DNA of 64,000 bases from Thuidium tamariscinum (taxonomy: Eukaryota; Streptophyta; Bryopsida; Hypnales; Thuidiaceae), in contig OX344751.2 of assembly GCA_947034885.2 (NCBI GenBank), positions 10,602,001-10,666,000 of the forward strand. Direction: 5' to 3'. This document shows, one piece after another, positions 1,161 through 56,588 of the stretch. The first letter of the stretch is position 1. Every line of letters begins with the position of its first letter. The translations under genes were made by a program, and so were the position numbers. The notes under the pieces are model-generated. The model did no database searches, was not told the DNA's origin, and was given only the letters and a program-made list of their open reading frames with translations.

Positions 1161-2090
1161 TTAACCCCTAAAGGACTGAGGCATTTTCTGGTTGAAAACC
1201 ACTCAAAACTGCCATGTTTGCTACTTCCTCCCAAAAAACAAAAAAAAACAAATTTTTTAGAATCTAACCATAGGATCTTGTAAATTACTTGTTTGAAATA
1301 ATGCGGTAAAAATTTCATGAAGTTTGACCGTACGGATTGGAAGATATTAGCATTCAAAGTTGAAAAAAAAAGTTTTTTTGAACTCTGACTTGCAATTTCA
1401 GATGACTTTGACTGCCATTTGTTGAATTGTTTTGCACTATGGACCATGAAGTTAAAATTTTTTATGTTGAACATTTGAGTTAAGAATTAGGAGAAAAAAT
1501 TTCAAAAAATAACTACTTGATTTTCATTCATTAAAAAATTGTTAAGTAGAAGTAGGTCCAAGATTGAACAAAATACTAAGTTGTTAATAACTTTAAGATG
1601 TAATTGGAAAACCATGATCCCAACGGTGAGATTGTTTTTGCAAACATCCTAAACCCTATCAAAAAAGAAAATTTGAAAAATTTGAAAAATTGCATTCAAA
1701 AATGAATTCTATAAGTTATTTTTTGAAGAAGGTGCTTAGATTGCCCAAAATACAAGATTGTCCATAACTTTCTCATTATTTGTCCAAATAAAATGAACCA
1801 AAGCTTCAGATGTAGAACAAAACATAATCTTTGAGATAAAAAATAAAAAATAAAAAAATAATTTTTTTCGTGTTTTTTTTTTCCTGCCCGACGAACTGCT
1901 TTTGGGACTTAGAATGGCATAACTTTTGCTTCCAAGCACCAATTGAAATAAAAATTATATTTTTGGAAAGCTAATCTGATTTCCTATCTTCAAAAAAAGT
2001 TTCAAAAAATCAAAGCAAAAATTCAGGTCACACAAGCCTGCCCGAAATTCCAAGTGTCCCCCGAGGGGACTTCAGTCCTTTAGGGGTTAA
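1161..2090 (-). mobile_element. TTAA-flanked TIR element, copy 1 (930 bp)
   Basis: The ends are near-perfect inverted repeats: TTAACCCCTAAAGGACTGA on the left and the complement of TTAACCCCTAAAGGACTGAA on the right. The flanks differ outside the TTAA (gtac / gtca), so TTAA is probably the target duplication. The interior has no sustained reading frame, so the element is non-autonomous. Internal landmarks such as 'gatattagcattcaaa' are the reverse complement of landmarks in the copies at 38563 and 51362, so this copy is inverted relative to them. It is one of the best-preserved copies for its ends. Confidence 0.75.
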
Positions 2091-2434
2091 GTCAAATGTA
2101 ATAGAACTCAAAATTTACTAATAGGAACAACTTGGGAGCATAGAAATAGAAAAGGCAAGCATTTAGGCAAGTGGATTTTTGCAAGCTATGAATGTTTTTT
2201 TAAACAACTTTGAATGCTAATATCTTGCAATCTATAAAGCCTAATGGGCTAAAATTATTTCCACACTTTGATAATAGTATAGAAAAATAATGTATACTTG
2301 AAAATGAAAAAAATTATTTTCCAATTTTTACTCAATGCACCAAAAGTGGTGCCCTTTGAACAATTTTTGAACCATTAGCACAAATTCTAGTATGATCCAA
2401 GAGATTCAATTTTTTTTCATTTTTTTGTAGTTGA
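2091..2434 (+). repeat. Truncated TTAA-family fragment
   Basis: The motif 'tgctaatatcttgcaatct' near 2215-2235 is the same landmark found in the right third of the TTAA-flanked elements (for example near 35,645 and 39,305). No terminus is preserved, so this is a broken copy wedged between two better-defined elements. Confidence 0.45.
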
Positions 2435-3295
2435 TTAAACCATAACTACCTAATCAACTATACATGGCTAATCCAAAATTTTAGGCTCATTGTGGTGTAG
2501 ATAGTTAAAGTCCTTTAACTTCTAAAATAAAATTTACGGACAATTTTGAAGGTTATCTATTGAAATTTTTTATTTTTCCACTTAAATAAATAAATATTTG
2601 ATTTTTGAGAGGTTCTTAAAGGCATACATATACCATAAATGGAAGAATAAATCTTGAAAACTTTACTTGTTTTTTAGCTTTGAACAAAGCTTGCCAATTT
2701 CACTTGATTTGAAATCTAAGAAATTGTACCTATCCATTTGCTTTGAAAATGGTCCCAATGTAAGGAATACAATTTTGAATGATTTTTGCTTTTGAAAATT
2801 TAAACTTGCAAGAGTTGGTTTGAAATTACTTGTGATTTCTACTTATAAAAAATATTGTTTTTAACTATTGCAAGGTTGATTGTGTAATGAATTTGATAGC
2901 TCTTTATTATGACTCAAGTTCTTTGGAAGTGCATTGTAATGTACTATTGCAATTTCTAGTTGTTCATGTCACCTCCAATCTCCTAAAAGATGTATTTTGA
3001 AATTTCTCAAATTTTAAGGAGATGGGCACCATATTAAAAATAAAATAAAATCATTTTTCTTGTTACAATTTCTCAACTCATGCAATTTCACACTTAAAAT
3101 TTGTACACACTCTAATTTTTTTAAACGCTCTCTAAGCATCTATATAGTTAGCTCTTTTCTTTTATAGAAAAAACTCATTTGCAAGGCGTGGCACTTGAGG
3201 TTCAAAAGAAGAAAAGTTTGTGTAGAAATTCGGGATTCTTATTACATGTTTAATTATATTTCTAGACTCCAAAGCCATTTTGGCACTTAGAGATG
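2435..3295 (-). mobile_element. Diverged inverted copy of the 0.8-kb TTAA element type D
   Basis: This block is recognisable as the reverse complement of the elements at 27919 and 48799. Shared landmarks are 'caatttctagttgttcatgtcacctcc' near 2950-2978 (fragmentary match), 'acaatttctcaactcatgc' near 3065, and the terminal 'TTAAACCATAACTACC' at 2435. It is much more diverged than the other two copies are from each other. The right boundary is approximate, with the last recognisable similarity near 'ggcacttagag'. Confidence 0.5.
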
Positions 3296-3474
3296 GTGTT
3301 TGAGGTCATTTATTTTCACAGCAAAAGAATAACAAAGAGCATTTCTAAGAATAATTTTTTTAGCCTTGCACATTTATATGTGTGCTCAAACAATGCATTG
3401 AAAAGTAGATGTCATTCTTTTTCAATTAATTAATGCCCCCCTTCCTCCAAAGAAACACTAATTGTTGATTGATT

Positions 3475-3990: not shown

Positions 3991-5365
3991 TATAGGAATT
4001 ACATATTTAAAAAATATATATAATTGATTGATTGGATTCCTTTTAAGTTCATAAGTTGGAAACATTGTCCATTTAAAACTAATCTTTTTGTTGTCTTAAT
4101 TATAAACATTAAAATACATATTAGATTATTAATGTTTCAATAAAAATTGACCTTTTTTTCATATTACTTTGGGAGTAAAAAATATTTCAATTGGATTACA
4201 TATTGCTTTAATATATATTTTTAGTCTTTCATTATTATTTTTGACATGATTAAATTCGATCATTTAGGTCATATTCTTTGTCAAAATTGGTTAAATTGTA
4301 TTTCTATATATATTTTAAAAAATCTTATGTTTATGAATATAGATTCTAATTAATGTACCTAATCTAAATTGTCATAATTTAGAAGTATCATGTCTAAAGC
4401 ATCATTACTAAAGTGACCCCTATTTTGAATTCATTTTAGTCTATATTTCCATCTATTTTAGGTTCTTGATAAGTCATCAACACTACCATTAATCTACTAT
4501 AAGTTTTCAAGAATTTTAAAAGATGAAGAATTTTGTTAGGCACAAATTATTTATATACTCAATCCACCATAATGATTAATTTTTTATATGATTTTACAAG
4601 TAAATAATTTAATTATATATATAAATTGATAGATTTATTTATGAATATTAATCCCTAAATCTCTTTGACTATTTTTGACAAAAAATATCTAAGAGTGTTA
4701 TTTTCTAGTCCATTGAGAATGGATGAAATATCAAAACATTTTTTATATTTTCAACCATACAAATGTAAACTAAACTACTATAGAAATTTGTTTAAAAAAT
4801 TTAGACCATTTTGCTGCATAGATTGTAAGATTGTAATTTTGAAGTTAGAAGAAAAGAAATTTTGGGTCCTATCTAATACTACTAACTTCGTAGAGAAGGA
4901 AGCATCATACAACTTTGGAAACTCAAACCATTGAATAGGTAGTATATTAATTACTTTCACATTAATTAATGAAGGTAATGGAGCTCTCTAACTTACCCTA
5001 AAACATCTTTGATGTGAGAGAATGTCCCTTCTAAAGTTGAAAAGCAACTACATAGATAAGATTTCAATTTTTCCTCAAAAAACTCATCTTTTGGAAGAAT
5101 TAGGGGGAAAAGAAAAGAAAAACCATTTATAAATAACATACTCATTTTGAAGTACATGAATGAAAAATCCTACAACTCAAAATTCAAATCAATCAAAGTC
5201 ACTCAAATCCCTCAGATCACTGACATCCTTTCTTTCTTTCAAATATCGTACTTATAGTGAATTTTATAATCAATTATTTTGATCACTTATAGTGCAATTT
5301 GATGCAATGCCAAGTAATACAATTCATTTCATTTGAACAAAAGCTTATAGTTATCCAATGAAAAT
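3991..5365. other. AT-rich intergenic stretch
   Basis: I see no gene, no terminal repeats and no RNA gene here. The longest open frame (4665-4934, plus strand, 89 codons) has a low-complexity FKKFLYF composition typical of AT-rich noise. It overlaps an equally long frame on the other strand. Confidence 0.6.
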
Positions 5366-6010
5366 CCCTAAAATATATTTTTATAAGACAAGAGAATTTT
5401 AGAAGTCTAATTGTAGGATCTTCTACTAGACCAATATGAAGATGTTTAGAAGAAATTACAAGAAAATTTGACCATATTGATCATATGATATGAGCTTTTA
5501 AAGTAAAGAAAGAAAGTATTTTTTTTCTCTTAGCTTGACTAGATTTTTAATAAGACTAAAACTATGAGCAACTTTTTTTTCTAGAGAATTGTGAAAATTG
5601 AGTTCAAAAATGAATCTTGCAAATTATTTTATGGAATTGAAGATAATGCTTGATTGCCTTCAAAATAAGATAACTTTCTCATTCTCCATAACTTTTCATC
5701 ACTAGTCCAAATAGAATGAATCAAGGCCTTTCATGTAGACAAAAGTATTCTCTATGAGAATTTAATTTAATTTTTTTTTTAAACTTCAAATTTTGGTTGT
5801 GTCTTTGGTTGCCTGCATTTGCCTAATTTAAGCTTATAATACCACAAATTTTGCTCTAGAGTACCAATTGAAATAAAAACCATATTTTCAAAAATCAAAT
5901 CAATCTTCCTGCAATCTTGAAGAAAGTTTTAAAAAATATTTCTATAAATTGATATCATAGGTACCTCCCTAAACCTTCAAGGGTCTTTTTGAGGATACTT
6001 TTGGAACTCT
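5366..6010 (-). mobile_element. Decayed TTAA-family relic
   Basis: Landmarks in the same order as copy 1 are 'taggatcttctactag' near 5415, 'ataacttttcatcactagtccaaa' near 5690 (cf. 1765-1790), and 'taccaattgaaataaaa' near 5855 (cf. 1936-1955). The right end has decayed to 'accttcaagggtcttttt'. No intact termini remain, so this is an older copy of the element seen at 1161-2090. Confidence 0.55.
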
Positions 6011-7535
6011 AGGAATAAAATTGTTCAATGAATGCACAAAGATTTATGTTAAATAAAAAAAATGAACCTAATATTTGAATTTTTTTATGAACTTAAATTT
6101 TTTTTCTTTAAATTTAGTATGATAACATGACAAAGGTGCAAAGTCAATTTTGAAGGATTTTAATTGTCAAAATGAAATATTTGTTAGTATCTTGTGAAAT
6201 TATACTAGAGGTGTGTTTTACAACTTGTTTGAAGCTAAGAAAATTTCAAACCAACCCATTGATAGGAAATGGTTTAGGATATCAAAAAAATTGGTTTTGT
6301 ACTTTTCCAAGCTTCAATATGAATATAACACAAATTTCTATGAAGAATTGTATTGATGCACTTCCTTAGGACACTAGATTAACAACAAAGAGAGCACTAA
6401 AACACCCCAAAGCAACACACTATAAGCGTAGATCAGACATGAATGATTGGCCACTTCTTGGAAGAGTGATAACTTCTAGGAACCCCACTAGTCTACTTTG
6501 GAACTTATCTACTTTGGGTCTACTTGAACTTAAATTTAGGTCATTTTTAGGTGTCATTGAACAGTTGATGTCACTTTGGGGAGTATCTACCTTACAAGCA
6601 CATGATTTTTGAATTACAAGCCTTTAAAATTGGGCTTTGTAAGTGCTAAACATTACTCAAAGAAGTATGTATTTTGAATCAACTGCTGGTGGCTTCCATG
6701 GCCTACTAACTAAAGGGAAACTAACTTAACTTACCACTAACTAATGAGGGGTCCAGTGCAACATAAAGTCCCTTTTAAATACTTCCAGAGCTCCAGCTCA
6801 CCAATTGTGTCATAACTTAAAAGTTATACAGGATGTAGCTGAAGCTCTATGATTGAACTTTTTTTAGAATTAATACAGTTTATTAGGGATGCTTCAATGG
6901 AATTTGGACTTGAAGAGTTGAAGGGTGCCAGACCTTATCCTCATTGACATTTCCCTCCTTATTAACTTACGTAGATGCATGCCTAGAAGACTAGGCTTAA
7001 GATGTTTGGTGGTTTGCTCCAGTTTTAATTAAGAATTGTAAGCAGTTAAAGAAATCAAGGAATTTCTGAATGAAACAGTTTCAGTCAACTCACGTAAGTA
7101 GCCATTTAATGATTTGGATCCTTGCAAATTTTTTTTAAGGACTTTTCAGTTTTTGTACACGAACACCCAAAACCGTCCAAATAATGAATTCAGCATAGTT
7201 GGAGGCATTTTTTTCTAAAAATAGTATTTTTCTAGTATTAGCGAGTAAAAATCATGAATATTAAAAGAAATGATTTTTTGGATGTTGTATGTATTTTCTA
7301 TAATTTTCCTAAGTGTTGGCTCCTTAGACCACTAAAATTGTTCAGTGGATGCCTCCAAATTTGAACGTTGCTAAAATCAGCAATGAGCCAATTAGATTTT
7401 GGTATGTGTCCTTCATATGTGTCAGCAATTTAAAATCAAGCATTTGGCTAATACATTAATTGCACTCTAGGGATGGTTTTGGATGAGTCTAGGGTTCAAC
7501 GCAAGGTACATGTGTGGTATTGGGTGTTTCTCCAT
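6011..7535. other. Intergenic stretch, less AT-rich than average
   Basis: No gene or terminal repeats could be supported. The part from about 6,370 to 7,130 is noticeably less AT-rich than its surroundings, but all frames are broken by stops. Confidence 0.5.
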
Positions 7536-7537
7536 TA

Positions 7538-7661: not shown

Positions 7662-9841
7662 TTATTTTTATAGAAATATGGAAATACTAATAGGGAACTT
7701 ACTTTAAATTCCAATTGATTGTCATGTTCATATTCAAGGAAGAACACTCACTTGTTTTTGAATATTGGATGAAACAATTGAATGATATTTCCCCAAGATG
7801 AAAACATGACAGATTTTGTCACAAGAGTTGTAACGTTGTGTACTTTATTTATTTATATATATAATGTGAAAGTATGGAAGTTCATATATAGATTCCTATC
7901 TTTAAAAATGAAAGCAAATTTGATGATGTTACGGTATGTCAAGGTCAATAACCCATTGCCAGTAGAATGGATGCTTTGCTCTTATGGAATGGTTGAACAT
8001 AATTGAATTTTGTCCAACAATTACACAAATGTAAAAGAAGGCAAATGAAGATTTTATTTTTCCAATAAGGTACAAATTTGTAATGAGTTTTGAAGTACGT
8101 TCCCTTAATAGGACAAAGGAGCGGGCAAAGGAGTCACTGGACCCTTCCAATATCAATCAAAAGTGCATCCAATGTAGTTATGTTTTCCACCTAAATTGGA
8201 TGCAATGATTCCCTAAAACAATTGCTATTCATTGCATTAAATAGTCACTTTTCATAATAATTTTACATCCATGAGGTCAAAGTTCTTATAGCAATCACTA
8301 ACTCACTCAAATATCATCACTCAAAACTTTTATTATCACCACAATTCATTACATTGTAGCCCTATTCAATCATTTGAGAATGTCTACATTAAATTTGAAG
8401 ATACGATTATTTTAGACCCATATTTAACTAACTAAAATGGGCAAAGTGTTTGAAATTGGTTCATCTACCTTTATTCTCTAGAATCTTTTGGGTTGTGTTC
8501 CAAAATACGTTTTTATGAAACAATGTCATATTTTTTGTCTTTGGCAATCTCTCGGTTGATCCAATCCTCAAATCCCTTAGCTCACTTGTTGAATGTTGAA
8601 CTACAACTATAGGACTAGAGAAGGAGACACCAAATGAATTGAAAAATCAATGACATTTGAATTTAAGAAAATATAAAATTCAATCCATTCCTAAAGGTAG
8701 AATATCATCTTTCAAACTTTTGATTAAATTAATTGTACCTCATACAATTGTATAAAAAAATATCATATTGTAAAAATAAGTTGAAAAAATATGAATAAAA
8801 AGTTACAATAAATGCTTAATATTTTGATATTATTTAAATTTTTAGAAATTAGAAATTAGAAAATATTACGAATCAAAGAGAAATACAAGATTTTTGATAA
8901 TTGAAAATAATAATTGAATTTTCTTAATCCCAAACAATATATATCCCATGATTTTGTTTCTTTCATGAAATTATAAAAATTTGAGTTTTGAAATGAACTT
9001 CAAATATCAAAACTATAAAAGAATGTAATTGCCTACAAAATGAAACTTGTCTTTACTTTCATTTTGTAAATAAAACTAGAACAATTCAAAGTTTTCTATG
9101 TACATTTATACCTATATAACCAATATACTGTAATTTTTTTTTAAAAAGGACTCAAAAAAATAGATACCTATAATCCTATATTGCCCAATTTTGCTAAAAA
9201 ATGAAGTAAAAAACTTTATAAGTTTTGCAATAATTATTGGAATAGCAAGAAATAAACCTTAAGATGAAGAAAGTACAAAAAAAAATATTGAATCTTATGG
9301 TTTACAATAAATATTACAAAAATAAATAAAATTTGAAGTCACTATAGGTCTATAGCATGTTTAGAAATGCATTAATGCATTTGGATTCATAGAAGGTCTA
9401 AGAGACTAAATTTGATATTCATTCAATGGCACACTTCATAAATTGCAAGGCATACATTTAAAATGTCTATAGATTACTCAATGACTTCTTCATGTTGACT
9501 TCTATATGGATATTTGAAAGATAGTTTTATTGTTGAGTAAGACAATGTCAATCAATCATACATTAAAACCATTCTAATGACACAATGACAATAAAAGCAT
9601 ATCTACGATGTTTTTTTAAATTTTGGCTTGCAAATTTCATTGCAAATACACAATCCTAGCTAGGTTTCTAATTATCCAATTGGTAGAAATCAGTGGACAA
9701 ATGAATTTAGGAATTCAAAATTTAATAAAATAATAAAGTAATGAAAATTTTAAAATATTGAAAACCAAAGAACTAAATAACAAAAGTTTATAAATTTAAC
9801 CCGTAATTGATTGAGTATTTTTTTGGTGCTTCAATTGATTC
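7662..9841. other. AT-rich intergenic stretch
   Basis: I see no gene or defined element. Two small overlapping frames around 7,782-8,156 lie on opposite strands and have no recognisable motif. From about 8,730 to 9,340 the sequence is extremely A/T-rich with long A runs. Confidence 0.55.
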
Positions 9842-10760
9842 TTAACTCCTAAAAGACCAGTTGCTAAATTTAGCAACATAGCAATTTGAGGCAAATACAT
9901 GTGAGTGGAGATTTTCATATATTAGGTTGAAATTTTGATAGAATGTGGGGATTTTTTTTATGTGTACTAAAAATCAAGACATTTGGAAATATGAGTAAAA
10001 AGTAATGGCCTAATATGTTTATTTTTTTTTGTAAATGGGCAATTTGGGCAGATTGAAAAAAATCAATTTAAAAAAAGAAAATTTGAAATTGATTTTCTTC
10101 AGTTATGTATATGTGGAAAGCTTTAAATCATTTCATTTTGATCAATGAGTCAAAAGTTATGAAGAGTTTTTGTTTGTGAGCAATTTTGGGATTTCTACTC
10201 TATAATGAAGTTTGAAGTCTTTTATCTTATTCAATTTTAAATATTTAAAAAATAAATAAATCATATGATGTAAATTTTTTATTACAACATTGTAACCATT
10301 GGAATTGGCATCTTTCAATTCCTCTAAGAAATTCTTAACAATTTTGTATTTTGAATCATTTGCTACTTCTTTCTACTTATTATTTTTTTCCTATATGTTG
10401 TACAATTCCAAATTATTTAAAATATTTTAGGCAAGTACCCTACTTGGCCTCAACAATGAATCCAAACAAGCACAATTGTTTCAAACCATTTTTCATATGA
10501 TTTTTACCTACTGAAGAGCAGCTACATTGTTTTCTGTAAGGTGAAAAAATTTATTTTTGAGCATTCAAATGCTAATATCTTTCAATCTATGCAATAAAAA
10601 AATCTGGAATTTTTTCCACTTGTTATCAAACCAATTTACTTCAAGATTACATGGTTACAAACTTCAAAAAACGTTTTCTAAGAAAATTTGGTATTGGTAT
10701 TAGAAATGACAATTTTGACCATTTTTGGAGTAAATATAGTCAAGGAACTTTTGGGGTTAG
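9842..10760 (+). mobile_element. TTAA-flanked TIR element, copy 2 (919 bp)
   Basis: It starts TTAACTCCTAAAAGACC and ends 'acttttggggTTAG', a decayed TTAA end. The internal order is the family order: 'tagcaacatagcaattt', 'gaaagctttaaatcatttcattttgatcaatgagtcaaaagttatgaag' (read in pieces, 10,118-10,165), 'cattgtaaccattgg', 'tcctatatgttgtacaattccaaat', 'tgctaatatctttcaatct', and finally 'agaaatgacaatttt'. There is no coding capacity. Confidence 0.7.
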
Positions 10761-11415
10761 CAAACAATTGTAATTCCAATTTTTTGATATACTTGAATTT
10801 TTGCATATAGATGCACACAAGAATGTTGTAAATGCAAGACAATTTTCATAGAATTTGGATCAATGGATACAAAATTATATCTAATTTAGTCTTTTTTATG
10901 TAAATACAAGAAAATCAAGCAAGAAAAAATTTATATATTTGAATTTTATGTTGAATTTTTTCATGTATAGTCAATTAAATTTCAACTTATATAAGATATG
11001 AGACACATACATTCTTCTAAAAGAAAATTTGAAAGATAAACTATGAATACTACCATGTGCAAAGTCATGTACACAAAATCTTTTTTTTAGAGTTTCACAA
11101 CAAATATCTTACAATCTATGAGTTTTATCAATTTGAAATTTTAACACACCTTTTGTAAATTAGCTATATGATGTTGTAGTTGGATTAATAATAATGATTA
11201 AAGTAGAATATTTTCTAGTTGCCCATATTTGGACCAAAAACTCATTTCACCTTACAACTTTCCAGTTGTTTAGTCAAATAGGATACAAATTAGTATGCTA
11301 GAAAACTAGTATCATGACATATGGTTCTTTTAAATCAATTTTAAGAAAATGACTTCACAATGGCTTTTTCCAAAAATGCAAAGCTCCAATGGGCTTCAAT
11401 CCCTTTAGAAGTTAA
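10761..11415. repeat. Interspersed repeat ending in a TTAA-type terminus
   Basis: The right end reads 'atccctttagaagTTAA' (TTAA at 11412-11415), like the right end of the TTAA elements. Positions 11,190-11,280 match the window's first 450 bases in inverse orientation. The left end is not defined and abuts copy 2. Confidence 0.45.
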
Positions 11416-11446
11416 AAGAATTTGGAATTTCACCATAGAAACTTAT

Positions 11447-11692
11447 ATGGTCAATTTCGTTAAAATGGTGGTATTCCGAGTGCCATTTTGACATATTCTA
11501 TGTGCCACTTTGACAAATTTCAAGTGCCATTTTGGCATATTTTGTGTACCATTTTGACAAAGAGGCTTAGTGGTAGAAAAAAAATGTGCCATTTTAACGG
11601 AATGTTATGCCAATTTAAGAGAATGTCATGCCATTTTAATGAAATGTCATGCTATTTTATTGGGGTATCGCCATTTTAATGAAATTGACCAT
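11447..11692. mobile_element. Small TIR element with internal ~21-bp tandem repeats
   Basis: The left terminus ATGGTCAATTTCGTTAAAAT is mirrored by the right terminus ATTTTAATGAAATTGACCAT. TTAT flanks both sides (11443-11446 and 11693-11696), a possible 4-bp target duplication. The interior is a degenerate tandem array of a ~21-bp unit of the type TGCCATTTTAATGAAATGTC, with the first units (TGCCATTTTGACATATT type) more diverged. A decayed relative may be present at about 27,345-27,385. It is non-coding, and the apparent 60-70-codon frames are translations of the tandem repeat. Confidence 0.6.
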
Positions 11693-27918: not shown

Positions 27919-28726
27919 TTAACCCCTAAATGCCCAAGCCTTTTCAAGTGTGTTTTGACTGAGGAAAAAGTGCATGGCTTTGTAGTCATCCCTAGTGAAG
28001 CAAATTAATTTTTTCCCAAAATCTAGCCACATGGATGTTTAAAGAACTTGTTTATTAATAAGTGCACAAATTTTGAGCACAAAATTGCATAGGAGTTGTG
28101 AGATTACAACAAGAGAAGAGTATGTTTTCTATATTTAGTATGCTGCCTTTTCCCACAATGTTTCTCAAATTTGCATTTAAATTTTTGGGGGGATTGGAGG
28201 TGACATGAACAACTACAAAGAGTATTAGCACACTAAAATGCACTTCTAAAAAACTTAATTTCACATGAAAAGCTATTAAATTCATTACACGATCCACCTT
28301 GCAATTGTTGAAATGCAATTATTTTTTATAAGTAGAAATTGCAAATAACACCAAATCAATAGTTGTACGTTTAAATTTTCAATGGTGAATATCATGAAAA
28401 CACTTTCCTCTTTCCATTGGAACCATTCTCAAAGCAAATGGATATGTACAATTTCTTAGATCTCAAATCAAGTGAAATTGCACAAAGCTAGGAAATGAAG
28501 TAAAATTGGCAAGCTTTACACTTCACTTGTGGTACATGTATGCCTTTGAAGACCTCTCAATAATCAAATATGTACTTTTTTCAGTGAAAAATGAAAGTTT
28601 TCAATAATTAACCTTTAAAACTGCCTGAATTTTTTTTAACAATCGAAGGAATTCAACTTCTCATTTAGAAATGAGCCTGGAATTTCATATCGACCATATA
28701 TAATTGATTGGGTTGTTAGGGGTTAA
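27919..28726 (+). mobile_element. TTAA-flanked element type D, copy 1 (808 bp)
   Basis: It begins TTAACCCCTAAATGCCC and ends 'gttaggggTTAA'. The same element is present at 48799-49605, and a diverged inverted copy lies at 2435-3295. Between the two close copies about 455 internal bases differ at only three positions, while the left 225 bases differ at about 18 and the last 105 bases are barely alignable. The 87-codon minus-strand frame inside (28055-28318) is not evidence of a gene, because nearly all differences between copies change the amino acid. Confidence 0.7.
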
Positions 28727-34883: not shown

Positions 34884-35823
34884 TTAACCCCTAAAGCCCT
34901 AAATTGTATTTTTTGGCAACATAGCAATTTTGGACAACTCACTACGGATGGAGTTTTTATTTTTTTCTTCAAAATTTTCACACAACATGTGTCTGAGGAG
35001 TAGCTTCAAGACCAAACAATTTTCATAAATTTAGACCACATGGTTAAAAAGTTATGGCATGATATGTTGTTTTGTTTGAATTGCGAGTAGCCTGGGCACC
35101 AAAAAAAACTTCTTTAAATATTATTTTTTCTAAACATAAAAATTTGAATTTAGTTTATAAGATTTTTATCTATGTGGAAAGCTTTGATTCATTCCATTTT
35201 GATAAATGAGTCAAAAGTTATGAGGAAATTTAGTTTGTGGTAGTTTGTGGATACTTATAGAACCTTTACTCTACAAAAAAGTTTGAAATTCTGTATTTAA
35301 TTCTATTTTTAATATTTTTGAAGAAAAACTAAAAAATTGGATGAAGATTGTTTATTACAATATTTTAACCATTGGGATTGACATTTTTAATTTTTATAAA
35401 TAAATTGTTCAAAATTTAGTATTTTCAAGCATTTTCTAATTTTTTCTACTAACTATTTTTTTCCTATATATTATACAATTCCAAATGATTTGAAATTTTT
35501 TGGGCATATAGCCAATTTGAATTGTAAAATGAATTCAAAGAGTAACCATCATTTTGAGTATTTTTTCATACAAATGTGACCTTATGAAGAGCAGCTGCCC
35601 GGATTTTTGCAAGGTTAAGAAAAAAAAATTGCTAGTTCAAATGTTAATATCTTGCAATCTACACGGGGTGGAAATTTCTGAAAATTTTTCTACATCTATT
35701 CAAACCACCTAACTACAAGATCCTATGGTTAAATATGTCAAAAAATATTTTTTTAAAACAACAACACTTGTATTAGAAATCACAATTTTGGTAGAAACAT
35801 AGTCAAAAAACTTTAGAGGTTAA
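34884..35823 (+). mobile_element. TTAA-flanked TIR element, copy 3 (940 bp)
   Basis: The start is TTAACCCCTAAAGCCC; the end is 'ctttagaggTTAA'. Outside bases are unrelated (tttc / ctct). Internal family landmarks are 'ggcaacatagcaattttgga', 'ctcactacggatggag', 'cacacaacatgtgtctga', 'ccattttgataaatgagtc', 'gaagagcagctgcccgg' and 'aagatcctatggtta'. It has no coding capacity, and small frames in it are incidental. Confidence 0.8.
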
Positions 35824-38562: not shown

Positions 38563-39496
38563 TTAACCTCTAAAGGACCAAACTATGTTTTTTGGCAACA
38601 TAGTGATTTTGGGCAGTTCACTACGGGTGGAGTTTTGTTGTTGTTTTTCGTTGAAATTTTCACACAACATGTGTCCGAACATTATCTTGAAGGCCCAACA
38701 ATTTTCATAACTTTTGACTTCATGGTCAAAAAGTTATTGCATGATATGTAGTTTTCATTGGTCGGCGGGCAGCCCAAAAATTTCTTACAAAAACATTTTT
38801 TTTAAATTAATAATTTGAAATTGGTTTTCTAGATGTACAGATATGCAAAAAGCTTTGAATCATTCCATTTTGATTTATGAGATGAAAGTTATGAAGAGAT
38901 TTAGTTTGTGGGTAGTTATGGATTCTCTACTCTAAAATAAACTTTGGAAGCCTTTACTTTACTCAATTTTAAATATTTTTGAAAAAAAATTAAAATTTTG
39001 GATGCTGATTGTTTGTCACAACATTACAACCATTGGATTGGCCTTTTCTTGATTCTATAATAAAATTTTAACAATTTAGTACTTTATATCACTCTCTACT
39101 TCTTTCTCCTCATTAATTTTTTCCTATATGTTGTACAATTCCAAATGATGCAAATTTTCTTGAGCATGTAGCCAACTTGCCATGAAGAATGAATGCAAAG
39201 AAGCACCACCATTTGGGGCATTTTTTCATAGAAATGTGGCCTTGTGGAGTGCAGCTGCCCGATTTTTTGCAGGGACAAAAAAAAGGGGTTTTGTCAATTC
39301 AAATGCTAATATCTTGTGATCTACATGGTGGAAATTTCTGAAATTTTTTCCACATCTTTTGACACTAGTGTACTAGAAGATCCTATGGTTACATGTGTCA
39401 AAAAATGTTGTTTTAAAAAAATTTGGTGCTTGTAATAGAAATGGCAGTTTTAGTGTGTTTTTGGTGAAGACATAGTCTCTGACCTTTAGGGGTTAA
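38563..39496 (+). mobile_element. TTAA-flanked TIR element, copy 4 (934 bp)
   Basis: It starts TTAACCTCTAAAGGACCAAA and ends 'gacctttaggggTTAA'. The flanks are tttgt / ttttt. It has the complete set of family landmarks: 'caacatagtgattttgggc', 'tcactacgggtggag', 'acaacatgtgtccga', 'gcatgatatgt', 'gaatcattccattttga', 'tcctatatgttgtacaatt' and 'tgctaatatcttgtgatct'. It is one of the least decayed copies. It carries no protein-coding region. Confidence 0.85.
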
Positions 39497-46368: not shown

Positions 46369-47963
46369 ATGCTAACTTTTGGAGATTAATTACAAATTAC
46401 AAATGTATTGTATTTTTGACTTCAAAAGGCCATTTTTATTCTACACGACCCCCTCCTCCCTTTTCCTGAGTCCAAAATCTCATTGAAACCTAACAAAAGT
46501 TTAAAAACCAAAATGGGTAAAATTCCAACTTTTGGAGTTTGACTTTTTGTAAAAAGTGACTTGCCTAGATTCTTTAGTGTATATGGAGGAGTAAAAAAAG
46601 ACCTATCATCAACCTCATTCTAATTTGGTATACTCCTTAGGCGTTGGTCAATCTCGCCTCAACCTTTAAATTTGTTTGTTATTGGAGAATCTCACCAGTT
46701 GAGGCACCTATGACTATTGGAATGTGTTGAAACTTGTTGATGAATCTTAATAATATGAAAGAAGCTAGTATAATTTTAGTGAAATTTTATTGCATCTTAT
46801 AGATTTTCTAGGAATTTTCTACAGAAGGTTTCAACAATTGACCATTTAGAGAGGCATCTTCTGACCATCAAAAAATTCTGAGATTTTTTAAGGAACTTTT
46901 CATAAAATATTCCAAAAAATGTAAAGGCTCAAATCATTGTCCTCTACATTCAAAGAATAAAGATAAAACCCTGATCTCCATGAATGACATAGATAATAGA
47001 AAATCTTATCTACCAAGGGAAATCTTGAAGAATCGACTTCCCTAATCAACTTCTAGCTTGACTTCAACCTCATATCACTATTCTTGGTCATTGGATTCTA
47101 TCCACTAGTTTGTCTTGCATTGGTAATTCATATATGCCAGGATTTGGAGTTTTATTATTTTGTCGATGTGATGAGGAAACTAAAATTTATCCTTGGAATC
47201 CTACCCAAGGATCTTTCTAAATCTATCAAGATCTCTTTAAGATCAATTTAGCCAAAATTAGTCGCATGCTAGATTGCTAGGTCAATCACTCAAATATACT
47301 AATTTTCCACTAATTCTTGATCTTTAACTTATTTTGGATTCATTCAATGTACAATACTCTATCTTAGACCAAATACTATATTGGCATGTAGTATGCCTAT
47401 TTTATTTCTATATTCTTTTGAGGGATTTTTATATGCTTTTCCCTCTTTAATTTTGCAAAAAACCCAAAAAACCCAATGAGTTCAAGATGACAAATTGAGG
47501 GCTCACAAATGATTTTGGTGGAATATTTAGTAAGATGTTGAATTAAAGTATGGCTACATCCATATGAACCTCCATCTACATATTTTCAAGATTTAAGTAC
47601 TTAAATCTTATGAAAAGTAAAAATAGTACAATTCATTGATTACACTTTAGGTAGAAATTGAAGTAGAAGAGTCATTTGAATTTTGATCATCTATTTCATG
47701 TAGAACTCTAAGTTTGACTTTATTTCATAAAAGGATGGTAAATTATATAGATTTGAATGGTCCAAATAATAGATGAGAGTTATGAGGATTTTTATTGTAC
47801 ATGCAATAAAGGTAAAATAAAATATAAATTTGTTTTTTTAACTAAATTGTAAAATTTTCCACATGAATACAAAAAATAGGATGCATATTGATCACTAGGT
47901 CATTTACCATTGGAATCAATAACTCTCAATATAGAAATTTAGTTTTTTCTTTCATTATATACC
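46369..47963. other. AT-rich intergenic stretch
   Basis: No gene or defined repeat is seen. From about 46,430 to 47,110 the sequence is slightly less AT-rich, but every frame is interrupted. Confidence 0.5.
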
Positions 47964-48798
47964 TTAACTACTAAAGAATCTGGACTGTGTTTTCTTTGAG
48001 AAAGCTCCAAAACTATCATTTCTAATATAAGTACTAAATTTTAGAAGAATTTTTTTTCGGTACATGTAATATAGGATCTTGTAGTTAGGTTATTTGAGAA
48101 GATGTAGAAATAATTTAAAAGAATTTCTACCGTGTCAATTGTAAGATAGTATCGTTGGAATTAGCAAGTATTATTTTCTTAACCTTGCAAAAAACTAGGC
48201 AAGTGCACTCTAGATAGTCACATTTGTACAAAAAAGAATTCCAAATGGTGATTATTCCTTAGATTTGTTCTTCAAAGCAAACTAGCTACATACTTGAACA
48301 TTTTCAAATCATTTGGAATTGTATAACACATAGAAAAAAATACTCTATAGTAAATAAAAAGAAGTAGAGAATGATTCAAAACACCAAACTACTAACAATT
48401 TATCTATGAAATTGGAAAATGCCAATCTCAATGGTTGTAACATTGCAATAAACAACCTACATCTAATGTTTTTATTTTTTCCAAGAAATACTAAAAATTG
48501 AATAAAATAAAAGACTTCAAAGTGTGTCTTAGAGTAGAGGTTCGACAGTTACTTGCAAACTACCCACAAACTAAAACCCTTCATAACTTTCATCTCATTC
48601 ATCAAAATGGAATGATCTAAATATTATCATGAATATATAAATTTATTAAATCAATTTCAAGTTTTGATTTCTTAAAAAAGTGATTTTTAAAGAAGTTTTT
48701 AATTTGCCCGGATTGCTTGCTAAGCAATAAAAAATACTTATCATACAATACAATCACTTCTTAACCATGAAATCAAAAGTTATGAAAATTCTTGGGCC
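47964..48798 (-). mobile_element. Truncated inverted TTAA-family element
   Basis: TTAACTACTAAAGAATCTGG at 47964 corresponds to the right end of the family read in reverse. The landmarks follow in reverse order: 'aggatcttgtagttagg', 'aaatggtgattattcc', 'caatggttgtaacattgca', 'cttcataactttcatctcattcatcaaaatgg' (in part) and 'tcaaaagttatgaaaattcttgggcc'. The last ~135 bases of the expected element are missing, cut exactly where the type D element begins. Confidence 0.65.
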
Positions 48799-49605
48799 TA
48801 AACCCCTATATGCCCAAGCCTTTTCAAGTGTGTTTTGACTAAGGAAAAAGTTGATGACTTTGTAGTCATTTTTAGTGAAGCAAGTTGATTTTTTTCCAAA
48901 ATCTAACTACATGGATGTTTAAAGAGCTTGTTTATTAATAAGTGCACAAATTTTGAGCACAAAATTGCATAGGAGTTGTGAGATTACAACAAGAGAAGAG
49001 TATGTTTTTTATATTTAGTATGTTGCTTTTTTCCACAATGTTTCTCAAATTTGCATTTAAATTTTTGGGGGGATTGGAGGTGACATGAACAACTACAAAG
49101 AGTATTAGCACACTAAAATGCACTTCTAAAAAACTTAATTTCACATGAAAAGCTATTAAATTCATTACACGATCCACCTTGCAATTGTTGAAATGCAATT
49201 ATTTTTTATAAGTAGAAATTGCAAATAACACCAAATCAATAGTTGTATGTTTAAATTTTCAATGGTGAATATCATGAAAACACTTTCCTCTTTCCATTGG
49301 AACCATTCTCAAAGCAAATGGATATGTACAATTTCTTAGATCTCAAATCAAGTGAAATTGCACAAAGCTAGGAAATGAAGTAAAATTGGCAAGCTTTACA
49401 CTTCACTTGTGGTACATGTATGCCTTTGTAGACCTCTCAATAATCAAATATGTGCTTTTTTCAGTGAAAAATGAAAGTTTTCAATAATTAACCTTTAAAA
49501 CTGTCGGATTTTTTTTAAATGGTCAAAGGATTTATTTGCTCGTTCAGAAATGGGCTTGAAATTTTAGCTCAACTATATATGGTCGACTAGGCAATTAGGT
49601 GTTAA
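48799..49605 (+). mobile_element. TTAA-flanked element type D, copy 2 (807 bp)
   Basis: It is the sister of 27919-28726. It starts TAAACCCCTATATGCCC (first TTAA now TAAA) and ends 'aattaggtgTTAA'. The final TTAA at 49602-49605 is simultaneously the first TTAA of the next element. The core (about 49,028-49,485) is almost identical to copy 1, whereas its last ~105 bases differ strongly. Confidence 0.7.
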
Positions 49606-50538
49606 CCCTTAAAGGACCAATGTGAAAAATTTGGCAACATAGCAATTTTTAGGCAGGTATGTGTAAGTGGAGATTTTCATATTTTGAACCAAAATTTTAA
49701 TAGAAGGAAGGGACGAGGATATCTTTAATATATACCAAAAATCAAGACATTTGGAAATATGAATAAAATGTTATGGCCTAATATGCTACTTTTATTTGTA
49801 ACTGGGCAATTTGGATAGATTGGAAAAAAAAAACTTTTTTTAAAATAGAAATTTGAAATTAGTTTTCTTCATTTACATATACATGGAAAGCTTTGAATAA
49901 TTTCATTTTGATCAATGAGTCAAAAGTTATGAGTTTTTTTTGTTTGTAGGCAACTGTAGATTCTCTACTCTAAAATAAACTTTGAAGTCCTTTATTTTAC
50001 TCAATTTTCAATATTTTTCAAAAAGAAGAAAATCATAGAATGTAGATTGTTTATTAAAACATTACAACCATTGGGATGGGAATTTTTCAATTTCATAAAT
50101 AAATTCTTAATAATTTTGTATTTTAAATCATTTGTTACTTCTTTTTACTAACTATTTTTTTCCTATATTTTGTACTATTTGAAACAATTTGAAATTTTTT
50201 AGGCAAGTACCCTGCTTGGCTTCAAGAATGAATCTAAAGAAGCACACACATTTCGGACTATTTTTCATATGAGTTTTTGCCTTCTAAAGTGCAACTGCCT
50301 TGTTTTCCATAGGGTGAAAAAAAAGGTTTTTGAGCATTCAAACACAAAATATCTTGCAATCTACTTGGTAAAAAACTCTATAAATTTTTTGTACATGTTT
50401 ACAAACCAATGTGCGACAAGGTCCTACAGTTACAAATTTCAAAAAATGTTCTTAAGAAAAAAATTGATATTGGTTCTAAAAATGGCAATTTTTCACCAAT
50501 TTTGGAGTAAACATAGTCCAAGGAACTATAGGGATTAA
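49602..50538 (+). mobile_element. TTAA-flanked TIR element, copy 5 (937 bp)
   Basis: It starts TTAACCCTTAAAGGACCAA and ends 'actatagggaTTAA'. It carries 'caacatagcaatttttagg', 'aatcaagacatttgg', 'ttcattttgatcaatgagtc', 'acaaggtcctacagttac' and 'ctaaaaatggcaatttt'. It is closest to the copy at 9842 (both have 'gtgagtggagattttcatat'-type text), suggesting a subfamily. Confidence 0.8.
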
Positions 50539-50550
50539 AGCTACTCCTTA

Positions 50551-50670
50551 GGCAGTTGGGCACAGTTGTGTAAAATTTTTTAAAAAAAGAAATAAAAAAT
50601 TTATTTATAATGAGCAGCCTAAAAATTGCTATGATGCCCAAAATATGTATTTTGGGGCTTTAGGGGTTAA
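50551..50670 (-). repeat. Terminal fragment of an inverted TTAA-family element
   Basis: Read on the minus strand it begins TTAACCCCTAAAGCCCCAAA and continues with the family's 'catcatagcaatttttagg' sequence. Only about 120 bases remain. Confidence 0.6.
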
Positions 50671-50689
50671 AAACTATTGATCTACATCT

Positions 50690-51117
50690 ACATTTAAAAA
50701 TTAAATCACTTCAAACACATTGCATGCAAAATGTCAATCAAAAGTTTTAGAAGTAAAAGATTCAAATTAAGACTCTTCATAACTTTCATTTTATTAATCA
50801 AAATGGAATGATTCAAAGCCTCCAACATACATTTACTTCTAGAGAATCAATTTCAAAATTTCAAAATTTCAAAAAATAAAATTTTTAAAGAAGTTTTATG
50901 AGCTATCCAAGTTGTCTACTAAGTGATGAAAATGCCTAATCATACAATTAATTTTTAACCATATAGTCAAAAATTATGAAAATTATTGAACCTTAAAGGT
51001 ACTCCTTGGGTACATGTTGTGTGAAAATTTCAAAGAAAAAATAAAAACTCCATCCGTAGTGAGTTGCCCAAAATCATTGTGTTGCCAAAAAATGGTATTT
51101 GGACCTTTCGGGATTAA
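50690..51117 (-). repeat. 5' half of an inverted TTAA-family element
   Basis: On the minus strand it starts TTAATCCCGAAAGGTCC at 51117 and continues through 'ggcaacacaatgattttggg', 'ctcactacggatggag' and 'acaacatgtacccaagg' to the 'ccattttgattaatg' landmark near 50,798-50,815. It breaks off near 50,690, so about half of the element is missing. Confidence 0.65.
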
Positions 51118-51361: not shown

Positions 51362-52296
51362 TTAACCCCTAAAGTACCAAAGTGCCTTTTTTGGCAACAT
51401 AGCGATTTTGGGCAAGTATGTGTGACTAGAGATTTTGATAATTTCGAACCAAACTTTAATAGAAGGTGTGGACAAGGAGTATCTTCAAAGCCCAATAATT
51501 TTTGTGACTTTTGACTGCATGGTTGAAAAGTTATCACATGATATGTTGATTGTTTCCTCAACTCAGGTAGTTTGTGGAGATCAGAAAAAAATCACTTTTT
51601 TTGGAAATAAAAATTTGAAATTTGTTTTATAGATTTATATATACATGGAAATATTTGAATTATTTCATTTGGATTAATGAGTCAAAAGTTATGAAGAATT
51701 TTAGTTTTCAGATAGTTATGGATTTTCTACTCTAAGAAAAACTTTGAAGTCCTTTATTTTACTCAATTTTCAACATTTTTGAAAAAAAATTAAAAAAATT
51801 GGTTGTAGATTGTTTATTACAACATTTGAACCATTGGGATTGGCATTTTTCAATTCAACAAATAAATTGTCAATGTTTTAGTATTTTGAATCATTCTCTA
51901 CTTCTTTCTATTTAATATTTTTTTTGTACTTGTTGTACAATTCCAAATGATTTGAAAATTTTCAAGCATGTATCTAACTTGAATTAAAGAATGAATCCAA
52001 AGAGTAACAACCATTTTGAAAAAAAATTCATACAAATGTGGCCTTCTGAATTGCAGCTGCCTAGATTTTCGCAATGGTAAAAAAAGGACTTTTGCAACTT
52101 CAAATATTAATATCTTGCAATCTACACGGTGAAACTTTCTGAAATTTTTTCTACATCTTGTCAAACTGGTGCAATAGAAGATAATATTGTTACATTATTC
52201 CAAAAATATTTTTTTCTAAAATTTGATAGTTGTCTTAGAAATGACAGTTTTGAAGTAATTTTGGTGAAATAATAGTCAAAAACCTTTAGGGGTTAA
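51362..52296 (+). mobile_element. TTAA-flanked TIR element, copy 6 (935 bp)
   Basis: It starts TTAACCCCTAAAGTACCAAA and ends 'aacctttaggggTTAA'. The flanks are tgcc / cgta. It has the full order of family landmarks, including 'gcaacatagcgattttgggc', 'cacatgatatgttgatt', 'acatttgaaccattggg', 'attgcagctgcc' and 'tattaatatcttgcaatct'. No coding capacity. Confidence 0.85.
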
Positions 52297-54088: not shown

Positions 54089-54454
54089 GTTGTACCACTA
54101 TGATCTTTCTTAATTTTGGAAAGCCAACAACCATAGAACTATCACTAAATCATGTGCCTTTTTCACTTAAATATTTTTATTTGGTAAGCTAAATTAGACC
54201 ATTTATCTTTCATAGATTTATATTGGTCATCCATTAATGTGTATTGTATATATTATATAATGAATGCATTGTATGGAGTACATTTTGTGCAAGAGCGAGT
54301 CCATCAAGGTGAGCTAATGGGCAAAAGGCACCCAACACAATGCATTTTCTAGTGTTAAGAGTAGTTCCCTTAAGTTCTCACTGTGTTCTTGTGGTAAAAT
54401 GCAGCCCCCTTCCATGATAGAACCTCAATGCTCATTTTGCTTTCTAATTTTTCC

Positions 54455-55499
54455 TTAACCCTTAAAAGATGGACCTAGAACCATTGATTTCAAGCTCATT
54501 GCACATTACTTAATTTGTTGCCAATTTTGAAATAGAGATGTATGAAAAAATTTGTATTTGATTTTCAAATATGAAATTGTGTATCTTCTATATTTCACAA
54601 CAAATTTAGATTTTCTTTCGTAGAAAATTGTATTTTTTGAGAATTTTTGAAGAAAAAGTGAAGAAAAATCACATGAAATGGAAAATCATTCAAGAAATCT
54701 AAAAATTTCATTAAAGTGGATACACCTAAAAGCGCCACTTTTTAGATCATGTGCCTAGTAACTATTACTGGTCTGATCAAATTTTTATAGTCTTCTTGGC
54801 AAGTGAAAGCTTGTTCCAATGCACCAAAAAACGCAGCATTTGGATACAATATGCAAAAGTTATTAAGATTCAAAGTCTATTTCTAAAAGCACTCCAGCCA
54901 AATAGGTACACAATGGAATTCAAAAATGTACAACAACTATAGATGGTACTTTTAGGTGAGGTGCAATTTTGGGTGTACCCACCTTATGCGTGTATATTAC
55001 ACTCACAAATATCATGGTGCAAACTTAATTTCCGTGTCATTCTATAATTAAAATACAATAGACATTGAAAATACATCCAAAGTTCAAAATGCAATAAAAT
55101 GCTCAATATTATAAATTTTCTCAAAATTCAAATTGGAGCAAAAACTAGAATAGATAACCTTCATTTTGTTAGTTGGAAAAAAATTCAAACAATGTCATTT
55201 TTGTAGAGAAATTTCAGATTTTGAGCAAGGAGCAATGACTTCCCTGAATACACTAATTGAAATAAAATAATTAGTTATTAACTTCTCATTCATATTTTGG
55301 AATCCATTTTTATTACTAACTTCTCATTTACATGAAGACAAACATTAGGAAGACTACAAGCTTAATTAGGTACTCTTTGTAATCCTCCATGAAAGGTCAA
55401 TAAGCAAAAAATGAAAAAAAATTGCTTGCAATCTCCCTTCCCATCACCACATTCTCATTCAAAAGCTATGAATTGGAGTTGCTGGCATTAAGGGGTTAA
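54455..55499. mobile_element. TTAA-flanked element type E (1045 bp)
   Basis: The left end is TTAACCCTTAAAAGATGGACC (first 20 matter); the right end is 'attaaggggTTAA'. The termini resemble those of the other TTAA elements, but the interior is different and includes a nested 271-bp TA-flanked element (54714-54984), which accounts for the extra length. Confidence 0.6.
54714..54984 (+). mobile_element. TA-flanked AGGTRGG-family MITE, copy 1 (271 bp)
   Basis: It starts AAGTGGATACACCTAAAAGC and ends 'ggtgtacccacct', flanked by TA (54712-54713 and 54985-54986). It matches 58105-58375 in reverse: 'cttggcaagtgaaagc' / 'gctttcacttgccaac', 'tttggatacaatatgcaaaag' / 'cttttgcatacggtatcc'. The 63-codon frame across it is not conserved as protein. 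Confidence 0.65.
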
Positions 55500-55656
55500 A
55501 ACACATGAATTGGTGGAGGGATTGCTCTTAATGCCTTAATGTAACTCTTATTATAAGCTTAAGGTAAGAGAATCCATTAATTTCAATCAACTCCTTTTTT
55601 AACACTAGAATTCTCTTAAGATTGTTTCCAAAAGTACCTTGAAACCATCTCAATGT

Positions 55657-56588
55657 TTAACCTCTAAAAAATCAAGGTGTGTTTCTTTGCAACATAGAAA
55701 TTTTGGGCTAGTATATGTGACTAAATATTTCCATATTTTGAGCCCAAACTTTAATAGAAGGTATATATAAGGAATATCTTAAAGGCCCAACAATTTTTGT
55801 AACTTTTGACTACATACTTAAAAAAATGATTGCATGATATATTGATTCTTTTTCAACTTGGGTAGTTTGGGCAAATCAATATTTTTAAATGATTTTTTTT
55901 AGAAAAAAATCTAAATTGGTTTTCTAGATGCATATGTATGTGAAAAGCTTTGAAACATTTCATTTTGATAAATGAGCCAAAAGTTATGAAGAATTCTAGT
56001 TTGTAGGTAGTTATGGATTTTCTACTCCCAAATAAACGTTGAAGTCCTTTATTTAATCCAATTTTTTATATTTTGAAAAATAAGAGTATTGGGTGTAGAT
56101 TGTTTATCACAACATTTTAACCACTAAAATTGAAAATTTTCAAGTTTACAACTAAATTCTTTAATAACTTAGTATTTTGAATTGTTCTCTACTTCTTTCT
56201 TCTTACTTCTTTTTTCCTATATGTTGTACAATTCCAAATCATCTAAAAGTTTTTGAGTATATAGCGGAATTCCCTTAAAGAATAAATCCAAAAAAGCACC
56301 ATCATTTTGGATAATTTTTATACAAATGTGAGCTTGTGTAGTGCAGTTGCTTGAATTTTTGTAGGGTCAAAAAAAGAATTTTGACAATTCAAACTTTAAT
56401 ATCTGGTATTCTACATGATAGAAAATTTTGAAATTTTTTCCCTATTGACTTTGACCAACATCCTACAAGATCCTATGGTTATATGTGTCTGAAAATAATT
56501 TTTTTTCAAAAATTTGGTACTTATGTTAGAAATGATAGTTTTAGTGCATTTTTTGGTGAAAATATAGTGAAGGAACTTTTGCGGTTAA
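55657..56588 (+). mobile_element. TTAA-flanked TIR element, copy 7 (932 bp)
   Basis: It starts TTAACCTCTAAAAAATCAAG and ends 'aacttttgcggTTAA'. The flanks are aatg / cttaa. Landmarks are 'gcaacatagaaattttggg', 'gcatgatatattgatt', 'catttcattttgataaatg', 'tcctatatgttgtacaatt', 'gtgcagttgc' and 'aagatcctatggttatatgtg'. It is moderately decayed. Confidence 0.8.

What the first reader, a model, noticed from the sequence alone, without database searches (positions are those of the whole stretch)
1161..56588. A TTAA-specific family of ~0.93-kb inverted-repeat elements: candidate piggyBac-type MITEs in a plant
At least eight near-complete copies (1161-2090, 9842-10760, 33495-34404, 34884-35823, 38563-39496, 49602-50538, 51362-52296, 55657-56588) plus related types D and E share ends TTAA-CCCCTAAAGGNCC / complement. 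Lengths cluster at 910-940 bp. The sequence outside TTAA differs at every copy and no longer duplication exists beyond it, so TTAA behaves as the target duplication. TTAA targets with CCC-starting TIRs are the signature of piggyBac transposases, which to my knowledge are rarely described in land plants. Seen: ends, lengths, flanks. Inferred: transposase type.
Basis: partly seen in the sequence, partly recalled or inferred. Interest (0 to 1): 0.85.

Follow-up and report, generated by a model that had tools for sequence, protein, structure and literature searches.

The report
Moss piggyBac transposons and their miniatures
The repeated ~0.93-kb elements are shortened, gene-less offspring of piggyBac "jumping genes" that insert at TTAA, and the same plant genome (most likely a moss) still carries many piggyBac transposase genes, some copied very recently, which is unexpected in a land plant.

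Summary
In detail: eight ~0.91-0.94-kb copies lie at the stated places, roughly 57-79% alike. Six have TTAA at both ends. A ninth copy (47964-50670, minus strand) was missed because a type-D element and copy 49602-50538 sit inside it. That nested insertion is a natural empty-site test and gives a TTAA duplication with nothing beyond it; one side now reads TAAA.

The window's own genome (363 Mb, 19 contigs) has at least 116 loci matching Pfam DDE_Tnp_1_7, the piggyBac transposase domain. One 5,143-bp transposase-encoding element (L062+L018+L063) has ends that align with both ends of copy 1161-2090: 65% over its left 520 bp, 72% over its right 207 bp. That copy is therefore an internal-deletion derivative of a piggyBac element. 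The larger subfamily A matches the same two ends more weakly. The four catalytic aspartates are kept in 30 of 30 domains read. Eleven copies of a 5.1-kb element are at least 99.9% identical where read, indicating recent movement.

A LEAFY gene with a moss-type residue (recalled criterion) points to a moss. New member of a known kind, in an unexpected host.

The parts
1161..2090 (-). Copy c1, subfamily B; internal-deletion derivative of a piggyBac element (strand given in transposase direction)
   Evidence: TTAACCCCTAAAGG perfect at both ends; 1-520 and 724-930 align to the two ends of the transposase-encoding element in L062+L018+L063
33495..34404 (+). Copy c3, subfamily B
   Evidence: 66% to c1 over 948 columns; outer TTAA decayed; left end scores 56.5 against the element's left end, best of 300 shuffles 29.5
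9842..10760 (+). Copy c2, subfamily A, inserted into another repeat that has an inverted paralogue without the element at 39-1056
34884..35823 (+). Copy c4, subfamily A
38563..39496 (+). Copy c5, subfamily A; right end matches piggyBac-element 3' ends
   Evidence: E 1.6e-6 to a profile of five such ends
49602..50538 (+). Copy c6, subfamily A, nested in the split copy 47964-50670
51362..52296 (+). Copy c7, subfamily A
   Evidence: used as genome query
55657..56588 (+). Copy c8, subfamily A
47964..48802 (-). Ninth copy, subfamily A, part 1 (profile positions 124-932)
50535..50670 (-). Ninth copy, part 2 (profile positions 1 to about 133), beyond the nested D+c6 insertion
   Evidence: joined flanks match other copies across the junction
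50763..51117 (-). Truncated copy (profile positions 2-345)
4649..4845 (-). Fragment
   Evidence: E 2e-6
5390..6019 (-). Fragments of a B-like copy
8931..9151 (-). Fragment
   Evidence: E 3e-9
27919..28726 (+). Type D element, 808 bp, TTAACCCCTAAATGCC... (strands of the D copies are relative to each other only)
   Evidence: 92.8% to 48799-49605
48799..49605 (+). Type D element nested in the ninth copy; shares its right-hand TTAA with c6
2435..3182 (-). Third type D copy, 72-74% to the others
54455..55499 (-). Type E element, 1045 bp; terminal ~50 bp at 55499 match the 5' end of the recently copied piggyBac element L039 (strand from that match)
   Evidence: 76% over 50 bp, E 8.5e-5; best E for that end in five shuffled windows 0.021

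Best explanation
The ~0.93-kb repeats are non-autonomous miniature elements (MITEs) of the piggyBac superfamily, in a plant that is most likely a moss. Full-length relatives of about 4.9-5.9 kb elsewhere in the same genome encode piggyBac (DDE_Tnp_1_7) transposases with the catalytic D-D-D plus fourth D. Proposed mechanism: the transposase binds the TTAA-CCCCTAAA termini and subterminal sequence, cuts the element out and inserts it at TTAA, giving TTAA on both sides. MITEs arose when the middle (coding) part of such elements was lost; they multiplied on transposase supplied in trans, then decayed. Shown: the repeats, the TTAA duplication at a nested site, homology of both ends with a transposase-encoding element, the catalytic residues, recent near-identical copies. 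Inferred: that these transposases moved these MITEs, and seamless excision.
For: TTAA duplication at the nested D+c6 insertion. Genome copies of subfamily A, L002-L008: TTAA at both outer ends in 7 of 7, with unlike 300-bp flanks apart from one 20-bp match. At least 116 DDE_Tnp_1_7 loci, on all ten large contigs; Pfam E 1e-78 to 1e-79 on reading frames from three loci; the two PDB matches at E 0.001 or better are piggyBat and piggyBac transposases. Four catalytic Asp columns D in 30 of 30 domains. A 5,143-bp element with PF13843 aligns to c1 at both ends, E 1e-49 and 1e-31, and to the A profile at both ends, E 5e-20 and 4e-5; shuffle controls. A profile of five 3' ends, each next to a transposase sequence, has c1's left end and c5's right end as its two best window hits. 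Eleven copies of one element at least 99.9% identical over ~4.0 kb, each starting at TTAA with different flanks.
Against: No transposase remnant was found in the window (tblastn with three transposases at E 1: none). No autonomous element with exact CCCCTAAAGG tips was found. Subfamily A's left end matches only weakly (E 4e-5; score 39 against a shuffle maximum of 29). In the key stretch another B-type end lies 2.4 kb outside the element and matches c1's right end better (76%), and a second TTAA lies 12 bp beyond the right end, so that boundary could shift by 12 bp. The link of type D to a transposase element is a 20-bp tip only. The left TTAA of the nested test reads TAAA, and the second empty site (c2) has small indels at the junction. 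Sequence alone cannot separate a TTAA duplication from a TA duplication inside a fixed TTAA; the transposase class decides that.
Confidence: 0.95

Rival explanations
1. The elements belong to another TTAA-targeting superfamily (Kolobok or Sola3) and only look like piggyBac.
For: Kolobok also makes TTAA duplications (PMC9587614 passages).
Against: Kolobok termini are 5'-RR...YY-3' (same passage); these are 5'-CC...GG-3'. An element with a piggyBac transposase carries homologous ends.
Confidence: 0.02
2. They are PIF/Harbinger (Tourist, TTA/TAA duplication) or Tc1/mariner (TA duplication) MITEs with a preference for TTAA sites.
For: These are the common plant MITEs (recalled; TSDs also in PMC10004981 passage); TTA or TA can formally be read out of TTAA.
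Against: A 3-bp reading makes the inverted repeats asymmetric; the ends match a piggyBac element at both sides.
Confidence: 0.02
3. Subfamily B derives from piggyBac, but subfamily A (most window copies) has a different history: its middle did not come from a piggyBac element and only its ends were captured, or its parent lineage is extinct.
For: In the transposase elements read, A matches only about the outer 180-230 bp; its left-end homology is weak.
Against: A and B align along much of their length at about 57-60%, so they share an ancestor, and B matches the piggyBac element over 520 bp at one end.
Confidence: 0.25

Closest known systems
piggyBac superfamily autonomous transposons (e.g. 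piggyBac of Trichoplusia ni, piggyBat of Myotis)
   Same: DDE_Tnp_1_7 transposase with D-D-D/D, TTAA target, CCC-starting inverted repeats
   Different: Host is a land plant; elements are 4.9-5.9 kb with long open frames (up to 1,023 aa stop to stop in those read in full) around the domain; transposases only distantly similar to the solved ones (E 1e-27, 1e-22)
piggyBac-related MITEs of animals (mentioned in PMC10813416, passages; otherwise recalled)
   Same: Short, non-coding, TTAA duplication, ends of an autonomous piggyBac element
   Different: Plant genome, ~0.93 kb, order of 10^4 copies by rough extrapolation
Plant elements filed as PiggyBac in the literature
   Same: One review names PiggyBac among seven MITE superfamilies of angiosperms (PMC10004981, one passage); another lists it among plant class II superfamilies (PMC10794571, passages); a C-Fern repeat table lists 1,230 PiggyBac copies (PMC6890710, one passage)
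   Different: Those passages report no transposase-encoding partner; here one is found, and the host is probably a moss

Membership tests
piggyBac superfamily | Target duplication TTAA | tested here: met
   Nested insertion in the ninth copy, one side now TAAA; eleven recent element copies all start at TTAA, two read to both ends with TTAA on both sides
piggyBac superfamily | Inverted repeats starting CCC/CCY | tested here: met
   CCCCTAAAGG (MITEs), CCCCTAAACG, CCCTGAAACG, CCCCTAAGCG (transposase elements); CCC motif reported for animal piggyBacs in PMC10813416 passages
piggyBac superfamily | Related autonomous element encodes DDE_Tnp_1_7 transposase between the same ends | tested here: met
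   5,143-bp element, both ends homologous to c1; tips similar, not identical
piggyBac superfamily | Catalytic D268, D346, D447 and D450 equivalents (numbering recalled) | tested here: met
   D in 30 of 30 at each of four columns; alignment to 6x67 and 9c0f
piggyBac superfamily | Seamless excision restoring TTAA | not testable with these tools
   Needs alleles or an assay
MITE (internal-deletion derivative) | Short, no transposase gene, ends of an autonomous element, many copies | tested here: met
   No Pfam match below E 0.03 in the two element ORFs tested; c1 = 1-520 + 724-930 of element ends; family hits in 4 of 10 fixed 6-kb genome stretches
Kolobok | 5'-RR...YY-3' termini with TTAA duplication | tested here: not met
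   Termini are CC...GG; rule from PMC9587614
PIF/Harbinger (Tourist) | 3-bp TTA/TAA duplication with symmetric repeats | tested here: not met
   Symmetric repeats require a 4-bp (or 2-bp) reading
Sola3 | Sola3 transposase | not tested
   No profile searched

The most novel reading that the evidence does not exclude
A moss genome carries a diverse, recently and perhaps still active endogenous piggyBac system: several transposase lineages and, by extrapolation, thousands of dependent MITEs. It would be the first active piggyBac of a land plant that I know of, possibly acquired horizontally.
Probability: 0.5. Interest if true: 0.8.

Novelty: new member of a known kind. Interest (0 to 1): 0.62.

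Why it matters
piggyBac is a standard genome-engineering transposon, known (from memory) mainly from animals, fungi and protists. A land plant with many piggyBac transposase genes, near-identical recent copies and a large MITE population makes it testable whether piggyBac can be a major natural genome-shaping force in plants, how it got there, and whether a plant-native, seamless TTAA transposon tool can be had. A 2017 moss paper states that piggyBac had yet to be tested in Physcomitrella patens (PMC5505980, passages). In a moss that has its own piggyBac elements, cross-talk with introduced vectors would have to be considered.

Tried and rejected
Rfam scan of the window: no match at gathering score. 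ORFs as coding remnants: besides the kinase exons, the eight other ORFs sent to Pfam gave only sub-threshold matches at E 0.025-0.041 or none. Transposase remnant in the window by tblastn: none. A terminal-pair scan for more families gave known elements and cross-pairs. The repeat block 39-1056 / 9657-11799 was considered as a further TTAA family; only one clean end was seen, so it is not claimed. YABBY search to place the plant: 0 matches, but the tool warns that this does not show absence. The moss call rests on LEAFY 'KMRDYVHCYALHC' and my recollection that Asp at this position marks moss LEAFY; the passages I saw (PMC4701952, PMC4351887) did not state that residue. Literature: ten searches (listings capped at 8-25 rows). 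In the titles and abstract starts listed I saw no paper on endogenous piggyBac transposases in mosses; the library lacks most subscription papers. One apparent moss hit was the word 'piggybacking'. PMC8204020 (passages) concerned an oomycete. Structure prediction and fold search were not used.
Full report
What is in the window. TTAACCCCTAAAGG appears with 0, 1, 2 or 3 mismatches 4, 7, 6 and 16 times on the two strands; ten Markov shuffles of the window average 0, 0, 1.3 and 7.7. Long alignments between copies run at about 57-79% identity. Six copies (9842, 34884, 38563, 49602, 51362, 55657) align end to end and form subfamily A. Copies 1161-2090 (c1) and 33495-34404 (c3) form subfamily B, 66% alike and about 57-60% to A in the longer alignments. 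Six of the eight have TTAA at both ends; c2 has TTAA/TTAG and c3 has decayed at both ends.

A profile of the six A copies adds a ninth near-complete copy on the minus strand whose two parts, 47965-48802 and 50529-50670, are separated by a type-D element (48799-49605) and copy 49602-50538 standing side by side. It also adds fragments at 50763-51116, 4649-4845, within 5390-6019 (one search gives the outer limit) and 8931-9151, and two weaker ones. Type D has three copies (27919-28726 and 48799-49605 at 92.8%, a third at about 2435-3182 at 72-74%), and type E is at 54455-55499 with a fragment at 58074-58389. Profiles of A, B, D and E together cover 21.6% of the window.

Target duplication. The nested insertion is a natural experiment. 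Taking out D+c6 and keeping TTAA once gives a sequence that aligns gaplessly at the insertion point to c4, c5, c7 and c8. In a search of the window 7 places span the junction: c2, c4, c5, c7, c8, the fragment 50763-51117, and c6 itself. Nothing beyond TTAA is duplicated. Two qualifications: the left TTAA now reads TAAA; and sequence alone cannot tell a TTAA duplication from a TA duplication within a fixed TTAA. A second, poorer empty site exists for c2: its flanks match an inverted paralogue within 39-1056 that lacks the element, with small indels at the junction and no TTAA there. Of the 13 joins tried, only D2+c6 and c2 gave such a match to another place. Seven other A copies fetched from the genome (L002-L008) have TTAA at both outer ends and unlike flanks, apart from one 20-bp match.

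The genome. The window is G000:C3:10602001-10666000 of a 363.2-Mb, 19-contig assembly. A search with c7 gave 8,341 first-look candidates. The 40 that were scored match at 86-100%, 38 of them over the full 935 bp. Ten 6-kb stretches at round coordinates fixed beforehand (60 kb) contain family sequence in 4 of 10 (L051, L052, L054, L059), 5.4% of bases. The window is therefore denser than this sample, and a total in the order of ten thousand A/B copies is only a rough extrapolation from three stretches.

The transposase. A search for Pfam PF13843 (DDE_Tnp_1_7, the piggyBac transposase domain) returned 116 scored matches out of 659 candidates, E 5.7e-80 to 1.4e-70, on all ten large contigs; none of 14 control genomes rang, so that search has no positive control among them. 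By my hand count of that table 74 of 116 have no stop inside the matched domain. Reading frames from three loci give PF13843 at E 1e-78 to 1e-79. Against the PDB the two matches to the L039 protein are piggyBat (9c0f, E 1e-27) and piggyBac (6x67, E 1e-22), with the catalytic aspartates aligned. In the 30 domains fetched, the four catalytic columns are D in 30 of 30. The 30 fall into 4 groups at 50% identity, the lowest pair being 37%.

Ends of transposase-encoding elements. Loci L039 and L040, on different contigs, hold a 5,096-bp element, 99.96% identical, with identity stopping exactly at TTAACCCTGAAACGCC...GGCGTTTAGGGGTTAA. Of this group eleven loci were fetched (L020-L030; L020 and L021 are the same places as L039 and L040). 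The ten others differ from L020 by 1-3 mismatches over about 3,984 bp, two of them also by one gap. All eleven start at TTAA with different outer sequence; the far end was read only in L039 and L040. L022 sits in the TTAA at the end of an A-type MITE. L041 holds a 4,896-bp element and L042+L049 a 5,946-bp one, both with TTAACCCCT ends.

The link to the MITEs. In the 9,161-bp stretch L062+L018+L063, PF13843 lies at 5001-6149 in a 774-aa open frame, between TTAACCCCTAAATGCCC at 2588 and its counterpart TTAACCCCTAAGTTCCC at 7730. Copy c1 aligns 1-520 to the right end (65%, E 1e-49) and 724-930 to the left end (72%, E 1e-31). The left-end match includes the hairpin GTCCCCTCGGGGGAC. So c1 is what remains of such an element after loss of its middle. 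In the same stretch another B-type end lies at 1-196, outside the element, and matches c1's right end better (76%); no inner end was found that would make the two element ends into separate MITEs, and the homology to c1 stops after 207 and 520 bp. A second TTAA lies 12 bp beyond the right end. The A profile matches the same two ends, right E 5e-20 and left E 4e-5. Shuffle controls (300 each) give observed/maximum scores of 132/42 and 92/34 for c1, 66.5/32 and 39/29 for c5, 56.5/29.5 for c3.

Independently, a profile of the 3' ends at five loci (L042, L044, L045, L046, L048), each next to a transposase sequence, finds c1's left end (E 4.5e-10) and c5's right end (E 1.6e-6) as its two best hits in the window. 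The next three are other family copies (E 0.003-0.11), followed by a mix of family ends and unrelated places (first unrelated: 12783, E 0.32); the best of five shuffled windows is E 4.5. Type E ends like L039's 5' end (50 bp, 76%, E 8.5e-5; shuffle best for that end 0.021). Type D shares only a 20-bp tip (E 0.032), which is no better than shuffles.

Host. A receptor-like cytoplasmic kinase gene on the minus strand at about 61.3-63.7 kb (best-matching solved structures are plant PBL/RIPK-type kinases) shows a plant. The one LEAFY gene found, on C4, reads KMRDYVHCYALHC; Asp there is, from memory, the moss type. YABBY gave no match, which is consistent with a non-seed plant but not proof. I take 'moss' as likely, not proven.

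Mechanism and placement. The best reading is piggyBac MITEs. Termini and TTAA are recognised by a piggyBac transposase made by longer relatives, excision and reinsertion are at TTAA, and internal deletion creates non-coding passengers that spread and then decay. The CpG observed/expected ratio is 0.24 over 1-60000 against 0.97 in the kinase region, as expected for methylated, ageing repeats (inference). Kolobok, which shares TTAA, is set aside by its RR...YY termini (PMC9587614 passages). What stays open: subfamily A's direct parent, D's parent, actual mobility, and how the system entered the plant. The family is known; the host and the scale are what is unexpected. Reviews already name PiggyBac among plant superfamilies (PMC10004981; PMC10794571), and an animal survey's abstract says the superfamily was isolated also from plants (PMC10813416), so 'never in plants' would be too strong. 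In ten searches of an open-access library I saw no listed report of transposase-encoding piggyBacs in mosses.

Noticed in passing
39-1056 and 9657-11799: Inverted paralogous repeat blocks; the second holds MITE c2. One end reads TTAACCCCTATGATAATTAG, so they may be another TTAA family, but a matching second end was not found.
   Followed up: partly
1005-1156 and 2193-2373: B-type fragments on both sides of c1, as if c1 sits near or inside an older B copy.
   Followed up: partly
36817-38144: Tandem array with ~171-bp period plus long inverted repeats (36.9-38.1 kb).
   Followed up: no
17995-19645 / 24939-26035 / 29490-30022 / 45721-46817: Another dispersed repeat, 58-79% alike in both orientations; its type was not examined.
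   Followed up: no
61295-63746: Receptor-like cytoplasmic kinase gene (PBL-like) in several exons on the minus strand; 55% GC over 60500-64000 against ~30% in the rest.
   Followed up: partly
L062+L018+L063 stretch 2588-2640; window right end of 1161-2090; 33495-33550: Short subterminal hairpins (e.g. GTCCCCTCGGGGGAC) just inside the inverted repeats of both the transposase element and the MITEs; possible transposase-binding feature.
   Followed up: no
L014 and L015 (C8:23.93-23.94 Mb): Two piggyBac transposase loci with equal scores about 7 kb apart in opposite orientation.
   Followed up: no
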